Source: Gracilaria domingensis (Eukaryota; Rhodophyta; Florideophyceae; Gracilariales; Gracilariaceae). From it: a stretch of 50,645 nt of DNA. This document shows, piece after piece, positions 6,483-48,970 of the stretch (positions are counted from its first letter, which is position 1; every line of letters starts with the position of its first letter). The notes below the pieces were generated by a model that was not told the origin of the DNA, did no database searches, and saw only the letters and a program-made list of their open reading frames with translations. A program made the position numbers and the translations under genes. Where the stretch lies: contig VCMS01000464.1 of assembly GCA_022539475.1 (NCBI GenBank), positions 1 through 50,645 of the forward strand, read 5' to 3'.

Positions 6483-7029
6483 TGTCAGTGCGATATAGTA
6501 CGTATCGGGAGAAAACCCGAAGCGGTCTTGAGGCGACGGAGTTAGCTGCGGCTCGAGGGAGCGACTGTAATGAATCCGTACGGGGAGTAAGGAGGAAGCA
6601 CCGGGCGGTCAGGGGGGAGAGTGGGCGGTTGGTATCACCAATCACGTTCAGGAGCGTGCAAAAGGGTACGAACGGCCTAATAAACCTTGTAGTACTTAGC
6701 TTAACGGCCTGTCGGTAGCGCTACTTGACGAGCAAGACGTACGGCAAAGGGTGCTTGGTGTTTACAACGTGAGGTCATGGCGAGGTTGGGGTCTACCTAA
6801 ATATCGGGTAAACCCGCCTCTGTGCAGCCTCTAGGTAGCAACTTACAGTACTATATTACGCCTGTCACCGTCCGACCGGCACACCTGTCCTACGTACGTT
6901 TGGGACCGATATCCGATGCGGGGACAATCACGCGTACAACTATCCGCTCGGGCCAGCCCGACACGTACGACACGGCACTCCTCTCAATCCACTCCGTCCG
7001 TGCGGTCAGCCAGATCGTGCTATACGACA
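6483..7029 (-). repeat. Element 1 LTR (3' copy), 547 bp
   Basis: On the plus strand it begins TGTCAGTGCG and ends ATACGACA, giving TG...CA ends. The first 140 bp match 16963-17100 with small indels, for example GACGGAG...GCGGCTCGAGGGAGCGACTGT. It is followed at once by a polypyrimidine run that is a polypurine tract on the coding strand, which sets the inner border. Confidence 0.75.
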
Positions 7030-7043
7030 GATCCCCCTCCTTA
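7030..7043 (-). other. Polypurine tract of element 1
   Basis: The plus strand reads GATCCCCCTCCTTA, a purine run on the minus strand directly before the 3' LTR. This is the expected plus-strand primer site for reverse transcription. The 10-mer CCCCTCCTTA recurs inside the elements. Confidence 0.7.
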
Positions 7044-7861
7044 GATTGCACTCCGTCCTCGGAGTGCAGCCCAGTGCTGCGCCCAAGTCCGTTCGGCTGA
7101 GAAGAAGCCACCGATCGTTTCTTTCACAGAAAGTGCCCGCCACGGGCGGGGCGAAGCCATGTGAGAATTACACGCATGGCGTGGGGGAGCGGCGGAGCTA
7201 GTAGAACTGAAACAGACCGCTGGCGACAAGGGCGCTATGGGTGGCGCGTGGCCCGTGTCCGTTCATGGAACCGCCAATGCGGCGACCGAGGGAAAAGCTC
7301 GCGTGAAGGCGGCTGCGCCCGACTATGAGGGACACCGACCACCATGGTGGTAGGTACGCGGTCAGAACTGACACTTCCGCGTCCCAATTCGCGAAGCGAC
7401 GGAAGCGCCCGATGGTGTGCAACCGAGCGGTCACGGGGGCGCACGAATCCTCCTCCTTCGCACGCTACGGCGCGTTCGCGGCCGGTGAGACGCGCTCATG
7501 TCCGTTTCGGGTCGGTACCGTGTGGTACGCGCGGTGCGCGCGCCGCGGCGGACACTGTCCCGCCTTGCGACCTTCCGACGATAGTGGCGACGACAGCGAA
7601 GGCCGATAGTGAGGTTGTGCGCGTACTGGCTATGCGACTGCGCTCGCGGCGCGGCGACTACCACGTCGGATGCGTTCCGAGCGGGAATGGGCTTTAGCCG
7701 TCACGGAAAGGGGTGGATGTACAGTGATCATGCCCGCTCGGAAATAAATTGAGGTGTATGAGGCCTCAAAGTGTACGTATCGGTACGAGCGATATCGCTT
7801 TTCGCGAGGTCCCGAACGCCGTCCGTCTTAGCCCGTGCATCTCCGTGTCGTACCTCGCGGC

Positions 7862-7867
7862 TATAAG
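7862..7867 (+). promoter_or_regulatory. TATA box of the antisense gene
   Basis: TATAAG in the context GGCTATAAGAGC lies 33 bp before the first ATG (7900) of the plus-strand gene, a plausible core promoter distance. It points the opposite way to gag-pol. Confidence 0.55.
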
Positions 7868-7899
7868 AGCTCCCTTCCACCCGTCATCCGTTGCCCCCG

Positions 7900-10200
7900 A
7901 TGGGTTCGCAATCAAGCCAGTCGTCCGCCTCGCCGTCTGCGATGGCGAGTAATCCGAATCAACCGAGTGTGTCCGGTGGCGGCGGTCCGTTTCGGTCTAT
8001 GCCGCTTCCTGGTCAGCACTTCGACCATCGTAGTCGTCGTACGAGCCAGGCCCCGGTTCGGTCGAAGCAGGTTCCGATCACGGTCAACGAGTACATTCAG
8101 GACAATGCGGAGTACTTCGATGCGCGTCGCTTCGCAGCCATTCCGGTCTCGCTCCCATTACGTGAGGTGGCGAGCCGTAACCCAAAGCGTACGCGAATGG
8201 AAGCTTGGCAGGCACGTTGGAATCACCTTCCTGGAATCGTCGTCGTGCGGACGAAAGGACGTTCGGGATAGCCGATATGGCGTACTTAAGGTGCCCCGAG
8301 GAGCGCGAGTATCAACGCCGCCTTCAGAGCCTGATGCACCGGCTCAATTCCGACGCGAACTTTCCGCCCGAAAACGGTAACCCTCTCGCGTTGGTGATGT
8401 TCGAACCGCCGTACGACAGCTGTACTGGTTAGACCGCGAGCATTGGGGGAGCAACGCCGCGACGGAAGCCCGCATCCGGGGTTCACACCGTTTCTTCTAC
8501 TCCTGGCACAACGTCGAGTACTTCGACGTCACGAAGAACGACCGTACGACGGTATACTACGGTATGACCGAGGCGTGGAAGTCTGTGGAGGTCGAACGCA
8601 ACCTTTCCGTACCGACGCCGTCCGTGGTGGCATACCATTCGCGGGAACTGCTATCCCAAGGAGCGTTGAGCCGTGCGGTCTTGCAGATCCTGTACGCCGA
8701 GTGGGCAGTTTTCGCTTTCATGGCGTTCCTCCAGGCGGCCAGCGACGGTGTGGAAGTCTTCACCCGTGCGGGCGATCAGCGCCTGTACAACACGGACGAT
8801 TCGCCGCAGTACGGACGTTGTTCCCTCTCCCGTACAAATTGGTATGCATCTTGGCCGAAATGGGGTTGCAGAACATCCTGCGGGGGACCTCTTACCCCCC
8901 TGCGGTCGGTGAGAAGCTCCTTCAGTACTCTTTGGAGACGGACTGGTCGCAGACGCCGGGGTTCCTCTGGTACGATTACTTTGAGGACTCGTTCCCTACT
9001 ATGCCCGCATCCGGTACGGGCGCGTTGCCGATCGACCGAGTGCTATTGCCAACGGGACAGCTTCCGCCTTGGCCATTCGCGGATAGGCCGAACTACTTCC
9101 CGCATGGGTACATGGAAGAAGACTTCGAAGCCGCTCCTCCAGTGCCGAGGCGTGAGAGCGGGGTCCAAGCCGGTCTGCCTCAGTTATCCTCTGCGGCCGA
9201 GCCGGAGCCTGATCCGGAGATCGTGGAGGTACCTGTGCGTACGGAGCGAGAGGTCCAGGTCGGGTTCCCAGGCCGCCAATTGGACGCAATGGGTGTCGAA
9301 GTCTCTGGCGAGCGCCTCCAGACGTTGCTCAACGCCTTGCGGGCTGTATGCGTTCCGCGTGGGATTCCGGAGCCGACTGACGTGCTGGGCGCCCTGACGG
9401 CTGCGCGTACTTGGGTGCGTCGCGCGGCGAACTCCGAAGCGTGCCTGCGTGAGCAGGCTCAGGGCATGTTGGACCTACTCGGTTACCTTCGCGAACACAG
9501 CCTGCGCGTTCTCGGTTCGTACGAGCAGGGTATGCTGGCCGGTTTCGGGGAGGGTACTGCGCCGGACGGACAGGTTATGGAGACGCAGGCTCCGACGTTG
9601 GACGAGTTGGTCGGTGAGTCCTATCAAGGGTTGCACGACCAGGCCACGGTGGAGAATCAGGTCAACCAGATCGTTCAGAACCTGAGACGGGCGCGTGCGT
9701 CCATGTTGGACGGGGTCACTCTGAACCCTCCAGCACCTCCGGTGAGTCCGGAAGGAGCTGGGGGAGACGGTGGTGAGGCTGTCGCCGGTACGGAAGCTGT
9801 CGCTGCGACGGGGGACGGTGGCGCTCAAGCGTCCGGTGGCGGTGCTGTAGCAGTTGGTGACGACGTGGAGCCCGGGGATACCCCAATGGCGGAAGTTGCG
9901 TCCGGTGTGGAAGCTCCTAGCGCTCCTGCTCCGGTGACGCCAGGTACCGGTGCGGGTGCGTCAGGCGTGGTTGCCAGTGACGTTCCGGCGGCGAGCGCGC
10001 CTAGTCAGCCGCAGTCATCCGTAAGGGTCGTGGTAGCCAACGCTCCTTGGCCGGGTACTTCAAGTCCGTTCCAGCCGGTCAGTTCCCGAGGGGGCTCAGC
10101 GTCGGCCTACCGTTCGGGCATTCCGACACCTCGTGGGGGGCGTGGTCGTGGTGGTACGCGTGGCCGTGGTCGTGGCGTATCCAGACGTTGCCGGCAGTGA
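7900..10200 (+). pseudogene. Antisense accessory gene of element 1 (RGG-box protein, frameshifted)
   Basis: I do not recognise the family. A protein of about 765 residues can be followed on the plus strand, opposite to gag-pol, through three single-base frame changes near 8235, 8400 and 8820. It starts at ATG 7900 with a Ser/Gln-rich tail (MGSQSSQSSASPS). A structured part follows with many Tyr, Trp and Phe (RFFYSWHNVEYFDV, LQILYAEWAVFAFMAFLQ, WYDYFEDSFPTMP). A helical part with a Glu/Asp-rich flank comes next, then a Gly/Ala/Pro/Val-rich linker, and finally an RGG box (RGGRGRGGTRGRGRG) typical of RNA-binding proteins. A TATA box lies upstream and AATAAA 168 bp downstream. Codon usage is protein-like throughout, and the long reading cannot be a shadow because pol does not overlap it. 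The breaks may be decay or sequence error. Confidence 0.7.
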
Positions 10201-10460
10201 AGAGTATCCAGAAGAAGGGACCGGGTGGTGCGTAGACGGTTCCAATGTCGTGCGTGTCCTTGAGTAAACTTGTGTTGTTGTGTGCATTCTTCCTTTGCGT
10301 ACGTCAGGTTGAATCCGTTGACGTAAAGTGCCGATATCGGAAAAGGCGTCGTTTCACTAGATCGAAAAATAAAGGGGGTGAGCCAATGAGCGTACGGTTA
10401 GGGCGAATATCCGGCCAACCGTCGCGCGTCAGTGGTCGTATCCGTGTCGGTTGGAGCCCG
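10201..10460. other. Convergent gap between antisense gene and pol
   Basis: The 260-bp gap separates the stop of the antisense gene from the stop of pol, tail to tail. It contains AATAAA at 10368-10373 for the plus-strand gene. No further ORF is called. Confidence 0.6.
10368..10373 (+). terminator. Poly(A) signal of the antisense gene
   Basis: AATAAA sits 168 bp after the stop of the plus-strand gene and is followed by a GGGGGTG run. The position suits a polyadenylation signal. It is a six-base match, so chance remains possible. Confidence 0.45.
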
Positions 10461-13400
10461 TCACGTGCTTGGGGAGTAGGTGGCGTTTTGTCCGGCCGAC
10501 GGACTTCCGTCTGCTTCTCTCCCCCTCCTTAAGGGTGTTGCCGATGTCGTACGACTTCGGCGACGCCAGTATCGTGCGACAAAGTGCTGCGGGATGTTGG
10601 AAGGGGGTTCGTAGGTGTCGGATTCGGCGGTGTAGCCGTACCAGCGTACGCGGTATTGGACTCCGTCCGGCCTATCGCGGTGCGCTACGACGCGTTCCAC
10701 GACGCAAGGAACCGTATCGGGTGGCGGTAAATCGTCGCGGTCGACGACGTCGTCCGCGAATGGTCCCTCCGGGTCAGCGACGGGTTCCTCCCGTGTACGT
10801 TCGGTGGTAACGGGGCTACTCGTAGGCCGTGCGGACGGGGCGCGTGTGACGCGATCAATGGAGACGGTGTGTTCGATACCGTTTTCATCGATAGTAACGG
10901 TAGTGTCCGTTGTGGCTTTGACCTTGAACGGACCGGTGGTCTTCGGCAGTAGTTTCCGAAGAGTTCGTTCCTGTTCCGTTAGGTCCTCTTCCGTGCTTTT
11001 GTAATTGGGTCGGTCAATGTACACTTCCTCGCCTTCCGCGAACGTAGGGCGAAACCGGACGGTCCTATCGAAGTCGTCCTTGTAGCGCTGCTGTGCGCGT
11101 GTCAGCTTTGTCCGCGCGGTCTGAAGCGTCGCCTGTAGGAGTTTGAGTGTGTATCGCTTCAACTGGGCTGCGGACGGCTGAGTCGGTGTTGCAGGGTCCA
11201 AGGACGTACTGGGTTCGTCGATGAGGACGCTGGGGGGTGTCCTCGTTAGTGCGACCGCGAACGGGGTGGTTCGATGGACCTATGGACCTGGAGGTTATAT
11301 CCGTACGTAAGGGGTTGGACATATGCGTGCCACGTCCTTTGGTGGTCTGCTACGTAGTGGCGGAGGCGCTCCACCAGCGTCTTGTTGAACCGTTCGGCCT
11401 GCCCGTTTGTCTGGGGGTGATACGCAGTGGTCGAAACGTGCTTCGTGCCCAGTGCGGAGCAGACGGCCTCGAAAAACGTCGACGTGAACTGCGGTCCGTT
11501 GTCGGTTAGTAGGCAGTTCGGGATGCCGTACGGGTAAACCCAATGTTCCAAGAACGTTTTGGCTACCACTGGGGCGGTGGTTGACCGCAGCGGTATGGCT
11601 CGCGAGAGCTTGCTAAACCGATCGGTCATTACCAGGATATACTGGCATCCGTTAAGGGATCTGGTAAAGGGTCCCACTATGTCCATGGCAATAAACTCGA
11701 GCGGACCAGCTGCTGGGAAGAGCTTCAGCAGCTTCTGGGACCGATAACGGGTTCCTTTGACGGCTGGGCATGACCGACAATCCCGTACGGTCTGGAAGAC
11801 GTCGTTGGCCATGTGGGGCCAATAGAAGTCCCTCCGTAGTGTTTCGTACATTCTGGTGGCACCAGGGTGTCCGACCAAGCGGGGATAGTGCGCCAGGTAA
11901 AGAACGCGTGCCTGCAGGGACTCGGGGACCACCTTCTGTAGGGCGCCGTCCAAGCGTGAGCGTCGTATGAGTACTCCGTTTCGGTCGACATCGAACAAGG
12001 TAACCCCGTTGCCGACATCTCTCCGTACGGATTGGCAGAAAGGGTCCTGCGCCTGAGCTCGTACGAGTTCCTCGAGCGTGATGGGTACGATTTCGGTTTC
12101 TTCCGTGGCAGTGCCAGCACTTCCGGTATTCCTGGTGATTCCCGTTCGGGTCTTGGCCAATCTATGCAGACGTTCGTATATTCTTGTCCGTCTACGGTGA
12201 TGTTGGCTTTAACGAGGCCGTCGTCCGGACGGTCGTCGATGAGGAAACAGGGGACCTCGTCGTCTAGCGCTGAAGTGTCCTCTCCGTCCGTTTGGATTCG
12301 TGAGAGTGCATCTGCCGCTCGGTGTTTGATACCCGGTCGGTGAATGACGTCGAAGTCGTACTCCATCAGGCGTAGGCGCCACCGTGCGAGTCGCCCTGAG
12401 GCGTCCGCTAGGTTCAGTATCCACCTCAACGAGTGGTGATCCGTGCGAACAGTGAACTTCTGTCCTTCCAAATACGGTCGGAGGTGCAGGATAGCCATAC
12501 TACAGCGAGGCATTCCCGTTCGGTCGTTGAATACTTTCGCTCGGTCTTGGTTAGCGAGCGGCTCCAGTATCCGATTGGGAGAAGGTCCCCATCGGGTTGC
12601 CTCTGGAGGAGGGCACAGCCAACCTGACGGTCACACGCGTCGGTGTCCAGTACGTATGGATATCCTTGTTTCGGGATAGCCAGTATCGGGGGCCGTACCA
12701 GGCGTTGGCGAAGTTCGTCGAATGCCTCGTATTCCGTATCGGTCAGGGTTTCGAAGCTAGTAGGCTGCCCCTTTTCCAGTTTCTGATTCAGGGGAGCCGC
12801 TATCCGTGCGAAGTTCTGTACGAACCGGCGGAAGACGTTGCAAAGACCCAGGAACGAGCGGAGTTCCGTTTGCGTAGTGGGCGGCTTCGCCTGCTTGATG
12901 GCCTCCTGCGTCTTCGTAGACACCTGTAGCTTGCCCGGACGGATGATATGGCCGAGATAGTCGACCGTTCCACTAAAGAAATGACATTTGTCCAGTCGTA
13001 GGGTAATTCCTGCGGAACGTAGCATGTCGAGGATTGTCCGTACGTGTTCGTAGTGTTCTTCTATCGTTCTGGAGTAGATGATCACGTCATCCAGGTAAAC
13101 CAGTGCGTACTGCCACTTAACACGTGATAGGATGATGTCCAGAGCCCTCTGGAACGTAGCCGGGGCGTTCTTGAGTCAAAAGGCATCCGTACGTAGCGGT
13201 AGAGGCCCATGTGGGACGTGAAGGCTGTCTTGTCCCGGTCGGCTTCGTCCACTTCGGTCTGCCAGTATCCGCTATTGGCGTCCAGTGTGGAGAATATCCG
13301 TGCGTCTCCTAACGAGTCTATGCACTCGTCCATTCTTGGCAGAGGGTATGTATCCCGTACGGTCACGGCATTTAAATGGCGGTAGTCGACGCAAAAACGT

Positions 13401-14480: not shown

Positions 14481-14639
14481 ATTAGGGTAGATGTGAGGCC
14501 CACGGAAAGGTGAACTTTGTAATTTGCACTCGCGAATAAAACAGTGTCGTCCATACGTTCTGGGGTGTCGAGAATCAGTTCTGTTCTGTCCGCACTGGTT
14601 GGTTTGGGCTTGTCGCCCGGTGTGGCGAGGCTATCCGGC

Positions 14640-16255
14640 ATCGGAGGAGACGACGCCCCTACGCATCCTCCGGCTCGTTTTCCTGTTCCGAAACGGTCTC
14701 TTCCACCAGCATGGCTGCCTGCCGAGGCTGGGCGTAAGAGGTACGAGTCGGGCCAATATTACGGAAACCGATATTGGATGGCGGTGGCGTGTTTCTCCGT
14801 GTGGATATGCCGGTGCCGTAGTACCCTTCGTCGCGCCGGCGTTGGTAGTTTTGCTCGCGGATTGCGAGGAGTTTAGCTTTAACGTCCGGTGGGAGAAGTT
14901 GACAGCAGTTCGGCTCTCGCGAGAGGCAAATCCTGCACGGACGGTCCCTTGACGCCGCGCCAGGGGGGTTGCTCGATCTTTGGCCGGGCGTACTGGGGAA
15001 TGACCGTGCGGAAGTCGCTGGGGTGGTTGCACTTGGTGTGGTGGGTGGTGACGGCATGGAAGACCCCTGGGAAACGATGAGGACATCTTCGCCGTCGTCG
15101 TCCGACAGGGAATACGTCGAGGCCGAGGGGGACTCGACCTGGTGCACCTTCCTTATCGTACGAGTGGCACGAGGCCGAGCAGACGTAGTCTGCGTGTCCA
15201 CCCGAACGGACTGGCGGCGTGAGGCGCGGTGAGTATCGCCGTACGATTCCGCATAACGGGCGAGCGCGTCGTATCCGATACTGGGATGGGTGGTGAGGTG
15301 ATTCCGCACCTTTGACCGTATGGCGGGCAAAAGTCCTTCGACAAATAAGCCCTTCAAGTCCCGATCGGTGTATACGTTACCACAGCGGAGGGCTTTCGTC
15401 CAGAGCTTCTGGGCGAATTCCGTTTCGGACATCCCTGACGACTGGGTGTAAAACGTCACCTCTGCGGACGCCGTGGCGATGACTTCATCCGGGGCGTAGG
15501 TGGTCAGTAAGAAATTTACTACCTCTTCGTACGTATGGAGCGCTTCATCGCGAGGCCTGTCGACCGCTCCCGACTCACCGATGAGGCGGGATTGGACAGA
15601 GCGTGTGCGGGCCCGGTTAGGTAGAACTGGAAGCACCACAGTGCCGCTCCTTCTGTCAGTCCGTTATGGTTGCAAGCGGTTTTGAACCGCTGCAAGAAAT
15701 TGAGAACGGAGATGGGATCCGTTCCGGAAAATGAATGTCCTTTCATCTGGACGTTCAATTTCTTTTGATAGCGCGCGATCTTGCGTGCTACCTTCGAGTC
15801 GTACTTATGGCTGCGCCGAATGAGCCGGTACGTACGGTAGTCCACAACCTTGGTGAACTTGACGTTCAGAGGTCGGAGGCGCTTAAGCGTCAACTTGTCC
15901 GATCGGGAACGTCGCCGTTCGGACTTGCGTTTTCTTCGGGGGCTTTGAGAGTCCCCAGAGTCATCGAGTCCGGTCTGCTCATCCTCTGATGATGAGCGCG
16001 AGGACGCGGAGTCAGTATCTGAATGTCGTCGCCCTCTGCGGCGGCGACGATTCTTCCGTCTAACGTAGCGGAACTGTCCGGAGATCGAAGTGCTTGGCCC
16101 GGTTTACCGCCTCGATTGCGGTGATTCCTCCCGTCGTTCGAGGATCGCTGGCGAGCTTGCCGCTCCGGGTCACCCCTGAGGGGTACTGGCTGGAGATAGA
16201 CGACCGAGTCGGATCCTCTGCTGGATCCTGTCTCCACTTTCGTCCTGTCTCTCAC
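14640..16255 (-). pseudogene. Element 1 gag
   Basis: Gag forms the particle that packages the RNA. The N-terminal part is Ser/Arg/Asp-rich and leads into a helical capsid domain: ARYQKKLNVQMKGHSF, PISVLNFLQRFKTACNHNG, and after a frame change near 15630, SSGMSETEFAQKLWTKALR and DLKGLFVEGLLPAI. This is the retrotransposon gag pattern. The C-terminal part has a Cys-rich motif (PCRICLSREPNCCQLL) that is not a canonical CCHC knuckle. The 5' end is set approximately. Confidence 0.75.
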
Positions 16256-16962: not shown

Positions 16963-17100
16963 TGTGATAATCGTACGGTAATCGGGAAAGAAGACGAACG
17001 GTCTGAGGCGACGGAGTGCTGCGGCTCGAGGGAGCGACTGTCATGAATCCCGTACGGGGAGAGTAATGGAGGAAGCACATGGGCGGATCAGGGGGGAGAG
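16963..17100 (-). repeat. Element 1 LTR (5' copy), interrupted
   Basis: It starts TGTGATAATCG and matches the first 140 bp of 6483-7029, then stops abruptly at GGGGGAGAG where another LTR (TGTTGTGCAG) begins. The rest of this LTR is not found anywhere in the window. Confidence 0.7.
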
Positions 17101-17970
17101 TGTTGTGCAGAAGACCCAGGGCGATGGGGATAAGACACCGGCAAGGCGGTGTCAGACCCCGTCTCGATGGCGAGCAAAGAGACATGACAGCGCTCGCTCA
17201 GCAAGGTAGACACGGCATCTGCCGGGTAAAGACGGGGTCGTACTCACTTCACAGTAATGGTAGGGAGCGAACGCGGGAAGCAAGACGCGTCCGAGCGTTT
17301 AGAGAACACACGACACAAGTCGGCAGTGGCGTCACGTGGTAGCACACGGTACCACGAGTGTGGCGATGACAACGCCGAAGAGGCAGGTAATTTAGCACTC
17401 GCGACGCGAGTGTGGTCGAGCCAGACGAACGGTATGCACGGTAAGTCCAAGTAGTGCTACCTGTATACTGACAGGGGACAGAATAAAAGAAAACACACAG
17501 CAAAGTACACAGCAAAGCGCGTAGTGGTGTTTATGAATGCACGCGAGCGGATGATGAGGCCCTGCACAATGGTGGCGACTCTCCCGGGAGGAGGAATATC
17601 GTCACAGGGTGAAAACATCAGAGCAACACCTCGGTTAGTCCGTTGTGACTTCCGACAATGGGTGCAGCTGCTAACCTACTATGATGTGAGAGTGCCAACC
17701 CACTGTGAAGCGGTGTAGCGAAAATATCTAGAATAAACATCTAAAATACCCCAACTAATGGGTGCAAACTTCCCACACGTGTGTGACCCACCGGCTAAGC
17801 CGTGCGCTTCATAACACTAATTCTAATAGTTAAGTAACAAGAATGGGCAAGATCTCCACCAGTTATTCTGCATCACCGTTGTGCCGAGCACTCTCCGGCA
17901 AGTCCGGTGCCGTGCCGAATTGGTATGAATCGCCATCAGCGAGCGAGTCCCGCATCGCGTTGTCACTACA
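17101..17970 (-). repeat. Left (3') LTR of element 2, divergent
   Basis: It begins TGTTGTGCAG and ends GTCACTACA, followed by a polypyrimidine run. It aligns along its length with 29311-30069 (GAGAACACACGACACAAGTC shared) but with many extra bases and substitutions, and the last 250 bp differ strongly apart from AGCGAGC and CCGCAT blocks. Confidence 0.7.
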
Positions 17971-17983: not shown

Positions 17984-18225
17984 GGTGCGAGATCGACAAC
18001 GCGAGCGGTACGCTTACCTCCTCTGGAGTGTATTCTAAGCACGTCGGGAGTATGAGTGAAGGTCAGGCCAGATCCAGGCTCCCCGGTCTCTTACTAACGG
18101 CGACCGGTCACCGTCTCTCCACCCGTCAGCTGCGGTAGTGTCTGTCTCCGTAGCATACTCCGCGTTCGCTTCCTCCTCTCTCGACTTCCAGCGTTTCTTC
18201 TCTCCCTTCGCGGCCGCTTCCGGCG

Positions 18226-20290
18226 ATGCCTAACCACAATCAGGGTAACGATCAACCGCCTGGCGGTCCCAAAACCAATACTTGGTGGTGGTGTTGCTGT
18301 GTTTTCACACACTTCCTCCTGCTGGAGGATGGCACCCCGTTCACAGAGCGTCTTACCGCTGCGGTTCCGCTCCCTAACGGTCACATCCCGGATTCGGACA
18401 TATCTGCGCCTCTTCCCCAAACGGGGTGGCTCAACTGGTCCACGGTCCGGCAGACTTTTACCGCAAGTGGAACTGGGATGTGCTCCTGCGCGTTCGGTTC
18501 AACAGGTATGGTCAAGCCGCAGCGCGCCTTGGCAGTCGTACGGAACGAGACTCGACAAAACGTCGACCCGCACGCACTAAATCCACAGCCGTTTCTTAAC
18601 GAGGGGCGGGGCTCCGCTGGCCTCTCATCCGCAAGGCGTGACAAACCGTTCCCTCGTCGGGCGTATGCTGTAGTGGCAGCCGGCCAACCTCCCAGGGGCG
18701 TTTCACGTCTGGATGACGGTGACGTTTTCGACTGGCATTACCGGATTACCGTGCTACGCAACGCCCTCGTCAAATCGTGAGTCAGTCGCACAACTCCGCA
18801 AGACGGCTATGGTCCGCTCAGCGCACATGCGGAATGTATCGCATCCTACTCTGAGCGTCCCGATTCCGCGAAAAACTTCCGGGTTTCGACGTGGCCGTTC
18901 TCCGAACACCGGCGAAATTCCAATATGGAGGAATCTGCCCGGCGTCGCCGGTTGTGGTGAGCGTGTACCGAACGGTCTCGCGTTTCACGTGCAGGATCGT
19001 CCTGGTGCTGCACCCGTCCGCTCTTCCTGCGTGCAAGAATATTCGATATCTCCAACGCGTAGCGTCGCGGGTCACTACCTGTCAAGAAACAATGAATCTC
19101 GGAGTCCGCCGAACGACGGGCCCGCTTCCCGATAGGTGGTTACCCGTCAGTCCCGTAATCAATGATACAGCGGTACGTCGACGAAACCGGATGTCCGGTC
19201 CGCGCCACAATGCGTGGGTAGATATGTTTCTCTCCCTTTGTGTGGGGCGTCCGTGGAGGTCTGGTCCGTGGCTGTGTACGTGGCAACCTACACCCCCCTG
19301 TCTCAGCGTATGTGGTGTAGTAGGCTTTCGTGACAAACCGCGTTTGCAGCGGGATGGTGGAGCGTTGTCCTGCACGGAAGTGGGCTGGCGCGAACAGCGT
19401 GTATGTCTCTCGAACGAGGTTAAATACGGTGACCATATCGAGACTGTGGGTTCATGTCCCCGCGCTTGCGGCAACTGCAATCCGTGGAGCCTTGGATCTT
19501 CACTATCGCGCTTCGCGCGTAGCGAGAACTTCTCGGAAAGTGGGTATGCCTCTTGCGTAGTGATTGATGAGTCGACTGAACCAGGGTCCTCGTTCGCAAG
19601 AGCGCGCACGACGAAGCGATCTTGCCATTGAACGTCTCCGGGTCGCAGGTCCCCACGGTCGGGTGATTACATCTACTAACGACCCTGGACACCGGGTGAC
19701 CGATTACAAAACGCGAGGCGGAACTTCTTCGGAATGCGAGGCGAGTCACACTCCGGGGCACCGCAACGGGTTTCAATCATGACTGATGGTTTTTCACCCT
19801 GTGGGGATCAAAACATCATGGTTGTGACGCTCCGTATGACGGTGACGATATTGGCTGAAACCACTTCGCAGCAGCTCCGGTGGGAGGGCACGTAACCTGC
19901 TCAGCATGCCAGGTCCCCCAGCGGTGTCAACGCGTAGTCTTTCCCGACTCCGGTGAATGTTTCCCTCTAACGCCTCTAGCGCTCTGGCCCGGTAGTGGCT
20001 CCTGTTCCTACGCCTGTTGGCGGTTTCCGACTTCCAGCAGAGAATGTTGCTTCGCCTGCGAGGCGGCGTCGCGCTACGCCGAAGCGAACCGCGAACGCGG
20101 GACTGTACACGACGAAGCACGGAGCTGCCGCGCAATACTCAATTCCTCAGCGAGCTGTATCTCCGATCTCGACATCTGGCGACTGTCTCGCAGATGCCGC
20201 GACGCGCTAAGCGGCAGCTGCGTAAACGCTGGAGACCAGCAGGAATCCGAAGTAACTTCGTGCAGTTCTCCTCTAGGAGTCCTCCCTAGC
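18226..20290 (+). pseudogene. Antisense region of element 2 (broken plus-strand gene)
   Basis: An ATG at 18226 opens a Asn/Gln/Gly/Pro-rich start (MPNHNQGNDQPPGGPK), comparable in style to the start of the element 1 antisense protein. Protein-like stretches follow in changing frames, for example DFYRKWNWDVLLRVRF near 18450 and a Pro/Ala/Arg-rich stretch (PTPVGGFRLPAENVAS) near 20000. The region has the same place and direction as the antisense gene of element 1. I cannot follow one continuous protein because indels are dense, and I see no clear sequence match between the two proteins. The function is unknown. Confidence 0.4.
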
Positions 20291-29308: not shown

Positions 29309-29310
29309 TT

Positions 29311-30069
29311 GTTGTGCAAAACCCAGCGATGGGAAAGACACGCAAAGGCGGTTCAGACCCTCTCTCAAGAGGCGAGCACAGCAGTAGAGCGCTCCCACAG
29401 GTACGACACGGCAATGCCGGGTGTAAGACCGGGGTCGACCCTTCCCAAGTAATGGAGGGAGCGAAGCGGCGAAGAAGAAGCGTCCAGCGGTAGAGAACAC
29501 ACGACACAAGTCGGCAGTAGCGTCACGTGCGTAGCACGCGGTACCACGAGTGTGGCGATGACACGCGAGAGCGGTAATAGCCCGCGCGAGTGTGTCGAGC
29601 CACGAACGGTATGCACCGGTACACCAAGTAGTGCTACCTGTATAACAGGGACAGAATAAAGAAAACACACACAAAGTAAAACACGCGAAAGCGGTAGTGG
29701 TGTTAATGATGCCGCGAGGCGGATGATGAGCCCTGCACAAGGTGCCGACTCTCCGGAGGAGGATATCGGTCACCAAGGGTGAAACATCAGAGCCGAACAC
29801 TCGGTTGTTCGGTTTACTTCCCCGACATGGGTGCAGCTCAACCTACTAAGTAGTGTAGAGTGCCACTGTCAAGTGTGCAACCGGGCTAACTAAAATAAAA
29901 TAATAAATATCTAGAATATCCCAAAGTTGGCTGCCAACCGTCCATACACGTGTGTGGCCATCCAGCAATGATGTGCCAACCTCACCAGAGTCCTTGACCT
30001 CCACTGCACTGCAGGGGCAGTGATTTCACACCAAAAGCGAGCAAATACCGCATAAAGCGTGGCTCTACA
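29311..30069 (-). repeat. Right (5') LTR of element 2, 759 bp
   Basis: It begins TGTTGTGCAA and ends GGCTCTACA. I counted about a dozen differences from 41320-42082, most of them single-base indels, so the two LTRs are about 98% identical. Its right end interrupts the 3' part of a host gene. Confidence 0.9.
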
Positions 30070-30965: not shown

Positions 30966-32135
30966 TCACCAACATCGCGCGCGCTGCGCGTCGTCGCGCC
31001 CGCGCGCGGGCGCCGCCGACCGCGCCGCCGCCTTCTCGCGCGGCGGCGGCGGCGGCGATGCGCGCGCGCTGGTGGCGAAGGTGAGGAAGCTGGTGTGCCC
31101 CTTCATGACGGAGAACGGGCGGCTGTGCAGCGGCACGGCCGCGCGCACCACGCGCCCGACGTGGCGCTGCTCGCCGAGCGCAGCCACGGCCACGCGCTCC
31201 GCGCCCGCGCTGCGGCGCCCGGCGCCGTCGGCGTCGGCGTCCGAGGCCGCGCGCTGCTCGGCGGCGCTGGGCGAGCCGTCGTCGCCGCGCCTTCTCTTGG
31301 CGACGCGCGACGCAATCGACGACGGGCGCGCGTGCGCGCGCGTCCTCTTCGCGCCGACGGGCGGCGACGCGGCGGCGAAGCCCGGCGCGCCGTCGGCGCG
31401 GCGCCTGGTCTCGAAGGTCTTCACCGGCGCGGTGAGCGTTCTGACGGCGTAGAAGCGCGCGCGGCGTAGCTGCTCGCACGTTCTTGCCACCTGCTCCACG
31501 CACGGCGAGAAGGCGCAGAGCACGCCGTTGTTCTTGAGCACGCGCTTGGCCTCCGCCACCAACGCATACGGGGCGGGCACATCCAGGAACACGGCGTCTG
31601 CGCTGGCGTCGTGCACGCCCACAAAGCCCTCCTTGACGGCGTCCACGCCGGCGGTGACGCTGACGATGTGCGCAATGCGCAGGCGCTCAAAGTGGCTGGC
31701 GGCGGCCTCGGCGCGGCCGCGATGAAACTCAAAGCTGAGCACGCGGCCGTGCGGCGCCACGGCGGTGGCAAACGCGGCGGCGGCCGAGCCGGAGCCCGTG
31801 CCGCACTCGACGACGACGCAGCCCGAGCGCAGGCGCAGGAACGCGGCGACGACGAACGCGTCGTGCGGGTACACGATCTGCGTGCGGTGCAGCATGGCGT
31901 ACGCCATCAGCGCCGCGTTGGGCTGCAGCGCGTGCACAAAGCCGGCGCAGCGGCGCGCGTCGCGCGAGACGGCGCGCCAGCGCGTGCCGAAGCCGGCGCG
32001 CAGCGCGTCGTCGTGGCGGAAGCGCCCGTAGCGGTTGTCTAGGTGCGCGCGCGCGCGCAGCGTGACGGCGCTGAGCGAGGTGTACTTCTCGTGCACCACC
32101 ACCCAGGCGCGTGTCGCTGATATCGACGCGCTCAT
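30966..32135 (-). CDS. tRNA (adenine-58-N1)-methyltransferase catalytic subunit, TRMT61A/Trm61 type
   Basis: This enzyme makes m1A at position 58 of tRNAs together with TRM6. The start chosen, ATG at 32135, gives 389 residues and fits the family N-terminus (VVVHEKYTSLSAVTL, LDNRYGRFRHDD). Next come HRTQIVYPHD, the SAM-binding motif I (VVVECGTGSGS), FEFHRGRAE, ADAVFLDVPAP and FSPCVEQVARTCEQL, all diagnostic of Trm61. The conserved end MKGHTSFLTFAT follows a Arg/Ser/Ala-rich insertion of about 90 residues, and a Pro/Ala/Arg-rich tail ends the protein. The frame is also open upstream to 32594, but that part belongs to the neighbouring zinc protein. Catalytic motifs look complete, so the gene is probably active. 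Base composition is very GC-rich. Confidence 0.9.
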   Translation of the reverse strand: MSASISATRAWVVVHEKYTSLSAVTLRARAHLDNRYGRFRHDDALRAGFGTRWRAVSRDARRCAGFVHALQPNAALMAYAMLHRTQIVYPHDAFVVAAFLRLRSGCVVVECGTGSGSAAAAFATAVAPHGRVLSFEFHRGRAEAAASHFERLRIAHIVSVTAGVDAVKEGFVGVHDASADAVFLDVPAPYALVAEAKRVLKNNGVLCAFSPCVEQVARTCEQLRRARFYAVRTLTAPVKTFETRRRADGAPGFAAASPPVGAKRTRAHARPSSIASRVAKRRRGDDGSPSAAEQRAASDADADGAGRRSAGAERVAVAALGEQRHVGRVVRAAVPLHSRPFSVMKGHTSFLTFATSARASPPPPPREKAAARSAAPARGRDDAQRARCW

Positions 32136-32447
32136 CCGCCGCCACTGTGAGCGCGCCGGCACACACGGCGCAGACGCTGCGCTCGCTCGCGCACGCGCTG
32201 CACAAGGTGTGGTACGCGCTAAGAACGCACTTGTGGTGGCAGCGATTACATCGCCTTGGTGCCGAAAGCGGCTTGTACTTGCGATACTTTTCCTCCACTC
32301 GATCTTGCTTGCGCACGCGTCGCAAAGACCATTAGTATCGACCGCGCGCTCAATCCTGGCCGACAGCGCGGACCGCCGGTTGTGCCGGAACGCAACCGCG
32401 TTCTGGTGCGCCAGCGCGCGGCTCCTCGCTCGGCCGGACGTGCTCAT
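32090..32447 (-). CDS. C9orf85-like small zinc protein (one frameshift)
   Basis: From ATG 32447 the protein reads MSTSGRARSRALAHQNAVAF, then NGLCDACASKIEWR. In the next frame KYRKYKPLSAPRRCNRC and YHTLCSACASERSVCAVC follow. This is the pattern of human C9orf85 and its eukaryotic relatives: HQN start, paired CxxC motifs and the YKPLS block; the function is unknown, and the Cys pairs probably bind zinc. The frame change sits in a run of four A near 32265; one more A would restore a single frame. The end is uncertain because the second frame runs open into the TRM61 gene, whose ATG (32135) lies inside it. Confidence 0.7.
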
Positions 32448-32612
32448 GGCGTCCGCGGCGAAGCCGCGCCCGTGCGCCCGCGCATGCGCACGCGTGTTGC
32501 CCCCAAAGCGGCTGCTCGCGCGCCACGTGTGCACACGTCGCCAACAATGCGGGCCGCCATGGCGCGTCAAACCTTCAAACCAAAACGCACCCAATAGCCC
32601 GCGCTCCGCCGC

Positions 32613-39145: not shown

Positions 39146-39322
39146 ACAATCCATTCAAATTTTAATTCATTTTCGGCACAGAAAATGTTTTGATGATGTT
39201 TTCACGAATTTGGAGTAAGTATCTTATTGGAACCAAAATGGGCCTGATAACCAACGGATAAATAACCTGTTACTAGACGTCTGAGGTTAGTGTTCCGATC
39301 TTGGGCTCAAAACCTCTTCTTC

Positions 39323-41319: not shown

Positions 41320-42082
41320 TGTTGTGCAAAACCCAGCGATGGGGAAAGACACGCAAAGGCGGTTCAGACCCTCTCTCAAGAGGCGAGCACAGCAGTAGAG
41401 CGCTCCCACAGGTACGACACGGCAATGCCGGGTGTAAGACCGGGGTCGACCCTTCCCAAGTAATGGAGGGAGCGAAGCGGCGAAGAAGAAGCGTCCAGCG
41501 GTAGAGAACACACGACACAAGTCGGCAGTAGCGTCACGTGCGTAGCACGCGGTACCCACGAGTGTGGCGATGACACGCGAGAGCGGTAATAGCCCACGCG
41601 AGTGTGTCGAGCCACGAACGGTATGCACCGGTACACCAAGTAGTGCTACCTGTATAACAGGGACAGAAATAAAGAAAACACACACAAAGTAAACACGCGA
41701 AAGCAGTAGTGGTGTTAATGATGCCGCGAGGCGGATGATGAGCCCTGCACAAGGTGCCGACTCTCCGGGAGGAGGATATCGGTCACCAAGGGTGAAACAT
41801 CAGAGCCGAACACTCGGTTAGTCCGTTTACTTCCCCGACAATGGGTGCAGCTCAACCTACTAAGTAGTGTAGAGTGCCACTGTCAAGTGTGCAACCGGGC
41901 TAACTAAAATAAATAATAAATATCTAGAATATCCCAAAGTTGGCTGCCAACCGTCCATACACGTGTGTAGCCATCCAGCAATGATGTGCCAACCTCACCA
42001 GAGTCCTTGACCTCCACTGCACTGCAGGGGCAGTGATTTCACACCAAAAGCGAGCAAATACCGCATAAAGCGTGGCTCTACA
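41320..42082 (-). repeat. 3' LTR of element 3, 763 bp
   Basis: It begins TGTTGTGCAA and ends GGCTCTACA with TG...CA borders. It is about 98% identical to 29311-30069. A polypurine tract on the coding strand adjoins it inside. Confidence 0.9.
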
Positions 42083-44413: not shown

Positions 44414-47400
44414 TTATCCGACCATCGCTTGATGTAGGTTAGCCGGCAACGCCGTGTTAGTTCGACGATGGTACTGCACGATCTTCGATCGGGGTAAGTG
44501 CTCCACGGGTTCGTCCGAATCCCGCGACGGCGGATAGCCATACCAGCGTACCTGGTACTGAACATACCCCTTCGGATTCCAACTGTGTCCCACGATGTGG
44601 TCTACGACGAACTCTTTCGAGTATACGCCCCGCTCGAGCTCTTCCTGCGAAGGGTCGTCAGCGCGCTGCGGCGGTGCCGTAACTTCGTGACCAGCGGTGC
44701 TGTGAGTTTCTCCTGACGCCTTCGGCGGTGGATTTGCCCTCTGCTGAGTGTTCGTTTCCCGTTTCCGGGCTTCTTCAAGCAGCTTCGCCGCTTCGGCGGG
44801 TCCGCGAACGGCTAGTTCACGGGATAGTTCCCGTCTTGACGGTGAAGGCGGACGCGGAGGCGGATTGTTCACCACGGCACGTGCCGGTTCACGTGAAGAC
44901 ACGCGACGGTTCGCGGTGGTGGCACTGCCACGAGCTGTGACTGGCCTATTGTGTGGGGCGCGCTGCGCGCCCCAAGATTTGTGGTGCGCAAGCGCTCCTG
45001 CAGCTGCAGTGTGCGTTTTCCCTAAATCAGGGCTGTAATCCGTATCTCCAAAGAGCGGTGCGCCGTCATGACTTAGCGAAACGTCATGACGTGCGACTTG
45101 CGACTTCCCCACGGCTGGGTGCAACGGTACACTACCATTACCCGAGCCGGGGTGTGTGATCTTCGCTTCAGCGAGCGTCTCCTCTTCTTCCTGCTCTGCA
45201 GTGTCTAAGGTACCGGGATCTGCCGTGACTTCCTTAGTGCGCGCCCGCGAAGGCGGTATGTGGCGGTCGTCAGCGACGGTTTGCGGCGACTGCGCGTCCG
45301 GAATACTCCGTGATACACTATCCAGCTTCGCTGTAGCCTCACTCTGCCGAGAAGTCGAGTGTTCTTGATCAACTTCCGGCCTTGCCGTGGTAACGTCGCG
45401 AACGAGAGCATGCTCCGCGTCCTGCGCCGACGAGGCGATGGGCGCGTGTTCTGGCCACGATTCCCCCAGCGGATGAGCGATACCAGTATCCTGGGACAAC
45501 CTCGAGTCCGTTCGTTGCGTGCGGTATCCTTCAGAAAGGTCGCGATCCTTCGTAGAAGGTTGTGCATCCTCCGCAGAGTTCTGCGCGACAGCGGCCGACT
45601 GCGGCGCGTCCTTCGCGACTTCAACACGCGACAGCGGGTGATCCTTCCCACTGACAGTGGTGTCCGTAGCAACTACGTCTTCGACGGTGTCCTGAGGCGA
45701 CTCTGCCTCTGCTTCATTACTTTCCCGTGAATCACGGTGCTGCGACGGTAGCGACACCGGTGACTCACTCTCCGCGACAACGCGTGAATTCCCCTCCCCC
45801 TCCTTAGGTGGAGCGTTACGGGGAGCAGTCATCACGTCTGTTGACGGTGTGATAGACGCCGTGAAACGCGATTTCACCAGCGGTGTATGTTCCGATATCT
45901 CGGCTTGGGACGATATAATCGGTACCTCTGCGAGACCCCTTGCAGGGTTGCGAAGCCCCACAGTAGGTGTAGTGTTCTGCGACGAGAATTCTCGGTTCCG
46001 TGTCTGTCCAGCTTCCTGCTGTGAATCTGAAACTATTTCCGTGTGCACGGTTGGGCCCTGCACAACGCGATCGCGGGAGAAACGCTCATGAGCGTCGCCA
46101 ACTTCCAGTACGACTGTGTCCGTATTCACGCTAATAACGCGGTATGGACCATCAGCGATGGGTGAAAGCTTGTGGCGCCGCTCTTTTTCAGGGTTGTAGT
46201 ACTCCTTCCTGACAAAGGCGAGGTTTCCCACTTTCAGTGGCGGTAGTGGTCTCCGTACCCGGGCATCAAAGTTCCGCTTGTAAGCGTGTTGTGCTTTCGC
46301 CATTGACGACCTGGCGACAGGTACCATTGCGGATAACCACTGCTTCCATTGCAAGTAGTGATCCCGTATTGACGGTGACGTATCCAGCTTTGCTGATGGT
46401 TCAACCGCAACTGGCGGTGGTGTCCGTGAGAGCACGAGCTCAAAGGGCGATAAACCAGTTACTCTGTGAACTTGCGTATTATACGCATACGTCACGGTAT
46501 CCGTGTAGAGATCGCAAGTTTTCGGGTGTTCAACTGTATAAGCCCGCAACGCGGAGAGCATTGTCCGGTTAAACCGTTCGACTTGCCCATTGCATTGGGG
46601 ATGATACGTCGTCGTGAAGAGATTCTTCACGTCGAGTATCCGACAGACATCCTGGAAGAAACGTGCAGTAAACTGCGGACCATTATCTGAGAGGAGATTG
46701 ACCGGGGGACCGTAGACCATAACCCAATGGCGAACGAATGCCTCCGCAACACTGCGTGCTGTAATCGACTTCAACGGAACTGTCCGGACTAGCTTACTGA
46801 ATCTATCCGTAATAACGAGTAAGAACCGATTTCCTCGGGAAGTACGCAAGAACTCGCCGAGTATATCGATGGCAATAAACTCCAACGGCGCCCTTGCGGG
46901 GAAAAGTGTTAGTTTCTTCGCATGGCGACGCTGTTTAACTCGCTCTCGAGCACAATGTGTACACGCCTTCACGGTGGTGTAGCAGTCCAACGCTAACGCG
47001 GGCCAGTAGAAATCCCGACGCAGTGTCGTGTATAACCGCTTAGCACCCGGATGGGAAGCCATCCGCGAGTGATGCGAGAGATGCAATACCCTTGTTTGTA
47101 AGGAGTGAGGAACCACAATCTGTGGGGTAGAACGAACCACTCTGACGAGGTAACCTTGTGTGTTGACCCCGAACGGGATGTTAGCACCACCACTAATTTG
47201 GGAGCGTATCCTCGTACAGAACGGGTCAGATTGCTGTTCCCGCACCAGCTCTTCTGGAGTAATGGGGACGAATGTACCGGATTCCGGGTCTTCACCGTCT
47301 GCGACGAGCAAATCATCACAGATGTCGTCCGACACGATGTCGTAGTCTTCATCACCCTCCTCCATGAGGAAACAGGGGATATCTTCATCCTCGTCATCGA

Positions 47401-48970
47401 GGGGTAAAGCTTCACCTTCAGTTCCTAGACGTGAAAGAGCATCCGCTTGCGCGTTTAAACAACCCTTCTTATAGGTGACCTCGTAGTCAAACTCGGCAAG
47501 CCGAAGACGCCAACGCATTAAGCGTCCGGAAGGCTCCGTGACTGACATTAACCAACGCAAGGCGGAATGATCCGTATTGACGGTAAAGTGCACACCCATA
47601 AGATATGGTCGTAGAGTCTGCAAAGCCCATACCATGGCGAGACACTCCTTCTCGGATACCGAGTAATTGCGCTCGTGCACGTTGAGTGTACGAGACCAAT
47701 AGCCAATTGGTTTGCGTTCCCCTTCGGGTGTAGTCTGAAAGAGAGCGCAGCCAATTTGGTAATCGCTCGAATCCGTATCCACGGTGTACGGCAACCCGTT
47801 CTTTGGTAACGCTAACACGGGTGCCGTGGTAACAGCCTCTTTAAGAGAGTTGAAGGCCTCCACTTGCGTGGGGGTAAGTGGTCCCAATTTGGGCGGTTGT
47901 CCCTTCTTCAGGAGTTCGTTGAGCGGTCCCGCGATCTTCGCGAAGCGAGAAATGAACCGTCTATAAACGTTGCATAGCCCTAGAAAGGAGCGTAGCTCTG
48001 TCTGTGTAGTGGGGTGCTTCGCCTCTTTGAGGGACTTCACGCAAGCTTCCTCGATCAGTAACCGTCCTGGACGTATGACATGGCCCAGATACTTCACTGA
48101 GTGAGTGAAAAACTCACACTTCCTCAATTTGAGAGTAATTCCAGCATCCCGCAAAGCGGTCATTATCTCCCGAACATGTTCGAGGTGATCGTCCAAACTG
48201 TTGGAAAACACGATGATGTCATCGAGGTATACCAAGCAACTCCGCCATTTGAAGCGAGCTAACAAAATGTCCAGAGCACGCTGAAACGTAGCGGGGGCGT
48301 TCGTTAACCCGAACGGCATACGCTTAAAGCGGTATAGTCCTGAATGACAGGTAAACGCGGTCTTGTCACGGTCTTCCGGTCTAACTGGTACTTGCCAGTA
48401 ACCCCAGTTTGCATCCAAAGTGGAGAAAACAGTAGCATCGCCAAGCGAGTCGATATACTCGTCCATACGAGGTATGGGGTACACGTCTTTGACGGTGACA
48501 TCGTTCAAGCGACGATAGTCGATACAAAAGCGCCAGGACCCATCGGGTTTCGGAGCCAGTACAACTGGAGATGCCCACGGCGACTGAGCCGGTTCTATCA
48601 CGCCAGCGCGGAGCATTTTGTTGATCTGAAACTCTTCCTCTTCCCGTGCTTTCGGGCCTGCCCTGTAAGGGTGCTGAGCAATCGGCTTGGTCTCCGGCAG
48701 GAGGTCAATCCGGTGTTCCGTAGTTGAAACCTCTCCGAGGGAACCATCCCACATTGGTGTAAACTCTCGCAACATGTTGCGCAACTTCTCACGGTGTGAA
48801 ACCGGTACATGACCGAGATTCAATTCTTCTAACTCCTTGATAGGGTCAATCTTGTCATAACTCGTAGGAACGGTCCTAGCTTCCGAGTCATTCGTGTGTT
48901 CAACCGTCTGGACGGGCACCGTCTGGACGGGTCCGACGCAGACGAGCGCGACGATTCTCCCTCCCCCTCC
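44414..48970 (-). CDS. Element 3 pol: RT, RNase H, integrase, chromodomain (open)
   Basis: Residues are counted from GTG 48919. RT about 95-275: FCIDYRRLNDVTV, STLDANWGYWQ (Asp169), YLDD 231-234 at 48218-48229. RNase H about 375-500: TDSSD (Asp383), Glu423/425, TDHS (Asp450), ADALSR (Asp493). Integrase: HHCC finger with His616/623 and Cys653/656, then Asp685, Asp745 and Glu781, a D-D-35-E triad. A hydrophilic linker of about 450 residues, rich in Ser, Glu, Ala and Thr, separates the integrase end (about 960) from a chromodomain at 1427-1495 (FVVDHIVGHSW, YQVRWYGYP). All catalytic residues are present. The frame has no ATG at its start and begins after TAA 48971-48973, so it needs a frameshift or fusion from the protease frame. 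A 15-bp tandem duplication (48905-48934) lies at the 5' end. Confidence 0.92.
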   Translation of the reverse strand, partial: GGGGRIVALVCVGPVQTVPVQTVEHTNDSEARTVPTSYDKIDPIKELEELNLGHVPVSHREKLRNMLREFTPMWDGSLGEVSTTEHRIDLLPETKPIAQHPYRAGPKAREEEEFQINKMLRAGVIEPAQSPWASPVVLAPKPDGSWRFCIDYRRLNDVTVKDVYPIPRMDEYIDSLGDATVFSTLDANWGYWQVPVRPEDRDKTAFTCHSGLYRFKRMPFGLTNAPATFQRALDILLARFKWRSCLVYLDDIIVFSNSLDDHLEHVREIMTALRDAGITLKLRKCEFFTHSVKYLGHVIRPGRLLIEEACVKSLKEAKHPTTQTELRSFLGLCNVYRRFISRFAKIAGPLNELLKKGQPPKLGPLTPTQVEAFNSLKEAVTTAPVLALPKNGLPYTVDTDSSDYQIGCALFQTTPEGERKPIGYWSRTLNVHERNYSVSEKECLAMVWALQTLRPYLMGVHFTVNTDHSALRWLMSVTEPSGRLMRWRLRLAEFDYEVTYKKGCLNAQADALSRLGTEGEALPLDDEDEDIPCFLMEEGDEDYDIVSDDICDDLLVADGEDPESGTFVPITPEELVREQQSDPFCTRIRSQISGGANIPFGVNTQGYLVRVVRSTPQIVVPHSLQTRVLHLSHHSRMASHPGAKRLYTTLRRDFYWPALALDCYTTVKACTHCARERVKQRRHAKKLTLFPARAPLEFIAIDILGEFLRTSRGNRFLLVITDRFSKLVRTVPLKSITARSVAEAFVRHWVMVYGPPVNLLSDNGPQFTARFFQDVCRILDVKNLFTTTYHPQCNGQVERFNRTMLSALRAYTVEHPKTCDLYTDTVTYAYNTQVHRVTGLSPFELVLSRTPPPVAVEPSAKLDTSPSIRDHYLQWKQWLSAMVPVARSSMAKAQHAYKRNFDARVRRPLPPLKVGNLAFVRKEYYNPEKERRHKLSPIADGPYRVISVNTDTVVLEVGDAHERFSRDRVVQGPTVHTEIVSDSQQEAGQTRNREFSSQNTTPTVGLRNPARGLAEVPIISSQAEISEHTPLVKSRFTASITPSTDVMTAPRNAPPKEGEGNSRVVAESESPVSLPSQHRDSRESNEAEAESPQDTVEDVVATDTTVSGKDHPLSRVEVAKDAPQSAAVAQNSAEDAQPSTKDRDLSEGYRTQRTDSRLSQDTGIAHPLGESWPEHAPIASSAQDAEHALVRDVTTARPEVDQEHSTSRQSEATAKLDSVSRSIPDAQSPQTVADDRHIPPSRARTKEVTADPGTLDTAEQEEEETLAEAKITHPGSGNGSVPLHPAVGKSQVARHDVSLSHDGAPLFGDTDYSPDLGKTHTAAAGALAHHKSWGAQRAPHNRPVTARGSATTANRRVSSREPARAVVNNPPPRPPSPSRRELSRELAVRGPAEAAKLLEEARKRETNTQQRANPPPKASGETHSTAGHEVTAPPQRADDPSQEELERGVYSKEFVVDHIVGHSWNPKGYVQYQVRWYGYPPSRDSDEPVEHLPRSKIVQYHRRTNTALPANLHQAMVG
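45791..45806 (-). other. Internal polypurine run in pol
   Basis: The plus strand reads CCCCTCCCCCTCCTTA, containing the same 10-mer CCCCTCCTTA as the polypurine tract of element 1. It could act as an internal plus-strand primer site. It also encodes PKEGEG in the pol linker. Confidence 0.4.

What the first reader, a model, noticed from the sequence alone, without database searches (positions are those of the whole stretch)
7862..10373. Self-contained antisense gene inside a chromovirus
Opposite to gag-pol, element 1 carries a TATA box, an ATG 33 bp downstream, a protein of about 765 residues ending in an RGG box, and AATAAA 168 bp after the stop. Element 2 has a plus-strand region in the same place. 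Some plant gypsy elements are known to carry antisense ORFs, but a long aromatic-rich protein with an RNA-binding tail and its own promoter is not one I know. It might control or package the element RNA.
Basis: partly seen in the sequence, partly recalled or inferred. Interest (0 to 1): 0.78.

Follow-up and report, generated by a model that had tools for sequence, protein, structure and literature searches.

The report
Conserved antisense gene in seaweed retrotransposons
Jumping genes in what is probably a red seaweed carry an extra protein gene read backwards from the rest of the element; natural selection has preserved its protein, which matched no known domain or solved structure in the searches made here, and its job is unknown.

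Summary
The antisense gene is real. It does not lie opposite gag-pol: it sits between the chromodomain end of pol and the 3' LTR, tail to tail with pol. The window copy has four 1-bp gaps but no substitution against the C104 copy, so its broken frame looks like assembly error. Five copies carry it complete, as one frame of about 779 residues. Between subfamilies dN/dS is 0.19-0.37 (15 pairs), and 0.13 for the first 303 codons of a more distant copy; pol and gag give 0.12-0.48. A second chromovirus family, represented in the window by elements 2 and 3, carries a remotely homologous gene in the same place (hhalign E 6e-15). Homologues occur in the red alga Gracilariopsis chorda and unnamed sources. 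No convincing Pfam, PDB or fold match. The RG-rich tail is limited to family 1. Antisense 3' ORFs are known in plant elements and fungal Boty; this is a new protein family of that kind. Transcription and function are untested.

The parts
6489..7029 (-). 3' LTR of element 1 (the element reads on the minus strand)
   Evidence: 98.9% to the 541-bp LTR of the C41 copy, whose two LTRs are identical and flanked by a 5-bp repeat
7033..7044 (-). polypurine-tract-like stretch next to the 3' LTR
   Evidence: CCCCCTCCTTAG on the plus strand; role inferred from position
7731..7754 (+). 24-bp conserved non-coding element, candidate promoter or regulator of the antisense gene
   Evidence: 34 genome hits at up to 3 mismatches, 0 for the reversed control pattern; 33 of 34 lie 710-753 bp before a match to the gene on the same strand
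7861..7867 (+).
   Evidence: CTATAAG 39 bp before the ATG; TATA-like in 9 of 10 comparable sequences
7900..10235 (+). antisense gene, family 1 (about 779 aa in intact copies); this copy carries four 1-bp gaps
10368..10373 (+). AATAAA, possible poly(A) signal of an antisense transcript
   Evidence: lost in 2 of the 8 copies that reach this far
10461..13085 (-). 3' part of pol (RT-RNase H, integrase, chromodomain), in several frames
   Evidence: Pfam RVT_1, RT_RNaseH, Integrase_H2C2, rve, Chromo
10560..10703 (-). chromodomain at the C-terminus of pol
   Evidence: PF00385 E 4.9e-11; coordinates computed from its residues 167-214
14631..15639 (-). gag region, two ORFs without a convincing Pfam match
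   Evidence: assignment as gag from position relative to pol
16963..17102 (-). remnant of the 5' LTR of element 1, ending where the LTR of element 2 begins
   Evidence: 84% to the LTR; 17097 starts the next LTR-like repeat
18143..20251 (+). antisense gene, family 2, in element 2; full of short gaps, likely raw-read quality
   Evidence: tblastn of L036, E 6e-55; DNA alignments
44414..48919 (-). pol of element 3 (1501 aa, chromodomain); its family carries the family-2 antisense gene, this copy shows none
   Evidence: Pfam; pol end and LTR shared with family-2 copies

Best explanation
It is a conserved accessory gene of chromoviruses in a (probably red-algal) genome, carried on the opposite strand between pol and the 3' LTR. 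Shown: the frame is open in many copies, evolves under purifying selection between subfamilies to a degree comparable with gag and pol, and has a remote homologue in the same place in a second chromovirus family of the same genome. Inferred: because it is on the wrong strand of the genomic RNA, it must be made from a separate transcript of integrated copies, probably started near the conserved element at 7731-7754, and so works in trans and apart from the gag-pol ratio. Most likely job (inferred, about 0.35): a regulator or chaperone that binds the element's own RNA or DNA. It has a helical core homologous in both families, a low-confidence, probably disordered linker, and a family-specific tail (RG-rich in family 1; a short acidic helical tail in family 2).
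For: At 15 places the match lies, without a stop, in an open frame of 744 aa or more (C434 left out because its frame runs into withheld letters). Of the copies read, five contigs (C104, C2, C185, C336, C91) have both the conserved start and the conserved end. dN/dS: 15 pairs between subfamilies 0.19-0.37; L009 vs L013 0.225, differences 31/24/83 by codon position; the C20 copy 0.13 over the first 303 codons at dS 0.77; 500 neutral simulations never below 0.47; family 2 0.14-0.19 in the 12 most divergent pairs printed. Same elements: pol 0.12-0.26 (3 pairs), gag 0.12-0.48 (10 pairs). Homology of the families: hhalign Prob 98.4, E 6e-15, 215 collinear columns. Tail-to-tail place beside the chromodomain end of pol visible in 8 of 10 family-2 loci; the other 2 show none in the stretch held. 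LTR pairs in 7 of 10 stretches, 5-bp target duplications in 4 of those 7. Upstream element. AlphaFold of family 2: residues 92-470 mostly pLDDT 71-93, pTM 0.59. RG-rich tails in 4 of 4 family-1 sequences.
Against: No transcript or protein data. Among the four near-identical copies L005, L009, L011, L017 dN/dS is 0.43-1.06 on 9 to 19 changes a pair, as expected of recent copies but no support for selection there. Two long open frames (L005, L029) lack the conserved start codon, so an open frame is not always a working gene. The stretch at columns 660-770, between core and RG end, is weakly constrained (0.46-0.57). No fold or Pfam match gives a biochemical activity, and family 1 itself gave no usable model. 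Family 2 has no RGG tail, so nucleic-acid binding is not shown to be general. Element 3 in the window has no detectable copy of the gene.
Confidence: 0.72

Rival explanations
1. The protein is a structural or nucleocapsid-like partner of Gag: the elements' Gag lacks a CCHC zinc knuckle and the antisense protein supplies RNA binding in trans.
For: A regex for CCHC knuckles found none in the window and one hit in 11 fetched loci, that one beyond the element's LTR (L016:4068); 4 of 4 family-1 sequences end in an RG-rich tail; a 655-aa Gag frame has no Pfam match.
Against: Gag itself has long arginine-rich stretches that could bind RNA; family 2 has no RGG tail; the regex is a crude test and some stretches are withheld.
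Confidence: 0.12
2. A host gene captured by an ancestral element and kept as a passenger, or as an effector aimed at the host (for example against silencing).
For: Extra ORFs of plant elements are highly heterogeneous and thought to come from many sources (PMC6317226 passages).
Confidence: 0.12
3. The antisense RNA, not the protein, matters: convergent transcription makes double-stranded RNA that silences the element.
For: Gene and pol are tail to tail; antisense RNA control is discussed for other elements (PMC7264820).
Against: Codon-level purifying selection between subfamilies points to a protein product; the gene does not overlap pol.
Confidence: 0.05
4. Chance open frame or assembly artefact.
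For: The window copy is broken and element 2 is full of short gaps.
Against: Intact frames in other copies, selection, homologues in another genome.
Confidence: 0.01

Closest known systems
Antisense 3' extra ORFs (aORF-3R / eORF-3'R) of plant LTR elements: Grande gene23, RIRE2, Retand, PvRetro13
   Same: Gene between pol and 3' LTR, antisense, no determined function; Grande gene23 is reported to have its own promoter and a nuclear product (PMC7264820, parts 1-2 read)
   Different: Here the elements carry a chromodomain and the host is probably a red alga; the protein has no match to Transposase_28 (PF04195); Retand is described as a non-chromovirus lineage (PMC11963269, abstract listing and passages)
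Boty antisense gene brtn (Botrytis)
   Same: Additional antisense gene in a fungal LTR element (PMC7264820 and the title of Zhao et al. 2011 in its reference list)
   Different: Sequence not compared here; the original paper was not sought by id
Antisense genes of HTLV-type retroviruses (HBZ; name recalled)
   Same: Antisense gene expressed from the integrated copy; HTLV has an antisense promoter inside the 3' LTR (PMC7264820)
   Different: In family 1 the ATG is about 870 bp from the LTR with its own conserved upstream element; no Pfam domain found

Membership tests
Chromovirus (chromodomain Ty3/gypsy) | Chromodomain at the C-terminus of integrase | tested here: met
   PF00385 E 4.9e-11 in element 1, 2.5e-6 in element 3
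Chromovirus (chromodomain Ty3/gypsy) | LTRs and target-site duplication | tested here: met
   LTR pairs in 7 of 10 stretches; 5-bp duplications in 4 of those 7, read by eye
Chromovirus (chromodomain Ty3/gypsy) | Place in an RT tree with chromoviruses | not tested
   No tree was built
Antisense 3' extra ORF (aORF-3R) | Between pol and 3' LTR, opposite strand | tested here: met
   family 2
Antisense 3' extra ORF (aORF-3R) | Sequence conservation like that of other element genes | tested here: met
   dN/dS
Antisense 3' extra ORF (aORF-3R) | Present in most copies of the family | tested here: inconclusive
   Copies were found through the gene itself, which is circular; element 3 shows none
Antisense 3' extra ORF (aORF-3R) | Transcribed from an own promoter (as Grande gene23) | not testable with these tools
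   No RNA data
Retand TRP28 antisense protein | Transposase_28 domain PF04195 | tested here: not met
   0 Pfam families at E<=1 in 4 of 4 family-1 members; not among the two weak hits of 9 family-2 members
Env-like extra ORF | Sense orientation downstream of pol | tested here: not met
   Antisense
Env-like extra ORF | Transmembrane segments | not tested
   No predictor was run

The most novel reading that the evidence does not exclude
Red-algal chromoviruses have a standard third gene, read from the opposite strand by its own promoter, that encodes a protein with a new fold; in family 1 an RG-rich tail lets it take over RNA binding or packaging that a zinc-knuckle-less Gag cannot do, or shields the element from silencing. 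It would be an ancient accessory protein of these elements rather than a passenger.
Probability: 0.15. Interest if true: 0.75.

Novelty: new variant of a known kind. Interest (0 to 1): 0.56.

Why it matters
[quoted passage not shown] Here one antisense gene family spans two chromovirus families whose pol proteins are 51-53% identical and has relatives in a named red alga, with dN/dS values that say the protein itself is selected. That makes the open question of what antisense retrotransposon genes do testable with one protein family. It would also extend the arrangement to red algae, where the listings of my searches showed no report of it.

Tried and rejected
Rejected: chance ORF; gag duplication (hhalign of family 1 against gag: Prob 0.4, E 0.14); Transposase_28 kinship; viral relatives (family-2 alignment only: 0 confirmed of 53 pattern hits in viral contigs); solved-structure relatives by sequence (0 for family 2; one at E 0.75 for family 1). 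A first reading that window element 2 is only a 37% relative of family 2 was dropped when the DNA alignment showed that short gaps cause the divergence.

Limits of the selection counts: only copies with long open frames were used and degenerate ones left out. One search took 12 loci, printed only pairs with more than 60 differences, and for some rows included codons before the start; its values run from 0.19 to 0.81 (highest: L029 vs the partial frame L021). One search repeats 7 loci trimmed at the conserved start: 15 pairs between subfamilies 0.19-0.37, 6 pairs inside the youngest subfamily 0.43-1.06. The C434 frame (L021) was meant for the pol set but did not enter it. In one search, 12 loci entered and 12 of 66 pairs were printed.

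Full report
WHERE IT LIES. The window is contig C464 of a 77.9-Mb, 680-contig genome. The only organism-named relatives of the antisense proteins are from the red alga Gracilariopsis chorda, and a 78-Mb assembly is cited for Gracilaria domingensis (PMC10388701, passages); a Gracilaria-like host is an inference. Element 1 reads on the minus strand: remnant of a 5' LTR at 16963-17102, gag region 14631-15639, pol pieces down to 10461 ending in a chromodomain, then the antisense gene on the plus strand at 7900-10235, then a polypurine-like stretch and the 3' LTR at 6489-7029. LTR pairs were found in 7 of 10 stretches; in 4 of those 7 I read a 5-bp target duplication (C41, C2, C91, C20), in the other 3 none. 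The C41 LTRs are identical over 541 bp, so the family has moved recently.

THE FRAME. The window copy is spread over three frames. Against the C104 copy it has 0 substitutions and four 1-bp gaps in 2371 columns. Other stretches behave alike: window element 2 against a family-2 copy shows 61 substitutions and 223 gap runs, and the LTR pairs of C104 and C185 show 11 and 15 substitutions but 40 and 52 gap runs, while the pairs of C2, C41, C20 and C91 show no gap. Long-read assembly errors are the simplest reading; raw reads would decide. The genome search listed 91 matches from 75 scored of 201 candidates; at 15 places the match lies, without a stop, in an open frame of 744 aa or more (C434 left out because its frame runs into withheld letters). 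Not all of these start at the conserved ATG: L005 and L029 do not. Five contigs (C104, C2, C185, C336, C91) have both conserved ends, 779-780 aa.

SELECTION. Nei-Gojobori dN/dS from the conserved start onwards, 7 loci: 15 pairs between subfamilies 0.19-0.37; 6 pairs within the youngest subfamily 0.43-1.06 on 9 to 19 changes. L009 vs L013: 0.225, differences 31/24/83 by codon position. The C20 copy gives 0.13 (first 303 codons, dS about 0.77) and 0.30-0.36 (last 249 codons, dS 0.86-1.01). 500 random-substitution controls with the observed transition share gave 0.47 to 1.45, median 0.79. In the same elements pol gave 0.12-0.26 (3 pairs) and gag 0.12-0.48 (10 pairs). Along the gene, values are lowest at alignment columns 110-220 (0.06-0.10) and at the RG-rich end (0.05-0.18) and highest at columns 660-770 (0.46-0.57).

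A SECOND FAMILY. The plus-strand region of window element 2 led to a second gene: of 72 listed matches to its first ORF, 22 lie without a stop in an open frame of exactly 721 aa. In 8 of 10 of its loci the end of pol with the chromodomain stretch is visible on the opposite strand downstream; L045 and L047 showed none in the DNA held, and L040 has withheld letters there. That pol end and the LTR are those of window element 3 (by eye; LTR 88-95%). Family-2 dN/dS is 0.14-0.19 in the 12 most divergent of 66 pairs. Its homologues are G. chorda BWQ96_10156 and six proteins without an organism name, 35-48% identical; family 1 has G. chorda BWQ96_10536 and one without a name. Profile comparison of the two families gives Prob 98.4, E 6e-15, 215 collinear columns. 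The pol proteins are 51-53% identical over 713-951 columns. So the arrangement is either ancestral to both element families or was passed between them; I built no tree.

PROMOTER. In the 260 bp before the ATG, the stretch TGCCCGYTYGGAAATAAATTRAGG is kept even in the C20 copy. With up to 3 mismatches it occurs 34 times in the genome, 0 times for the reversed control; 33 of 34 lie 710-753 bp before a match to the gene on the same strand, one of them a copy whose protein match is only 39% identical (C518:30147). The exception (C6:495658) has no gene match within 3 kb in the capped list. In family 2 both possible start codons lie within 250 bp of the polypurine-like stretch beside the LTR, with TATTTAAG 176 bp before the ATG that the relatives share. 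None of this proves transcription; the element could instead act on the sense RNA.

PROTEIN. No Pfam family in 4 of 4 family-1 members at E<=1; two weak single-member hits (E 0.045, 0.092) among 9 family-2 members. The family-2 model has a confident helical core (92-470, with dips near 250-270 and 420; pTM 0.59) and no match in PDB or the viral library; absence of a match does not prove a new fold. The family-1 core is rich in aromatic residues (13.3% F+W+Y over residues 31-420). RG-rich tails are in 4 of 4 family-1 sequences; none of the nine family-2 rows has an RGG tail, though P0008 ends in a basic stretch (by eye).

CONTEXT IN PRINT. [quoted passage not shown] In Retand, 97% of clusters carry a TRP28 protein (PMC11963269, passages). 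A survey of green plants reports eORFs in most Ogre-Tat-Athila elements and their proteins as highly heterogeneous (PMC6317226, passages). From memory, a survey by Steinbauerova and colleagues found chromovirus extra ORFs rare and on the 5' side; that paper was not held under the DOI I gave. My searches for red-algal cases listed no title or abstract start that reports one; I read passages of three of the listed or related papers, not whole texts.

VERDICT. Observation partly confirmed, interpretation partly supported. This is a new protein family of a known arrangement, in a host group and element lineage where I found no report of it. Its most likely role, a trans-acting binder of the element's own nucleic acid, is an inference.

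Noticed in passing
7900-10235 and 18143-20251: Differences to other copies are mostly 1-bp gaps, with few or no substitutions: probable uncorrected long-read errors in this contig.
   Followed up: partly
29310-30069 and 41320-42082: 98% identical direct repeat 12 kb apart: apparently two left ends (LTR plus about 110 bp of interior) of the element-3 family.
   Followed up: partly
42082-44414: Element 3, with a 1501-aa open pol, shows no trace of the antisense gene that other copies of its family have in this place.
   Followed up: partly
30966-32594 (-): Ordinary gene in a GC-rich island: tRNA methyltransferase complex GCD14 subunit, Pfam E 2.7e-58.
   Followed up: yes
39290-40528 (+): 412-aa ORF with a likeness to tyrosine recombinases that is recalled only; no Pfam match at E 0.01.
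   Followed up: no
L012:2054-4018 (-): Gag frame of 655 aa without Pfam match or CCHC knuckle but with long arginine-rich stretches.
   Followed up: partly
L040:666-2549, last 60 residues of the protein: Family-2 proteins end in a short acidic, helical segment; one family-2 member has a sub-threshold hit to Ish1 (E 0.092).
   Followed up: no
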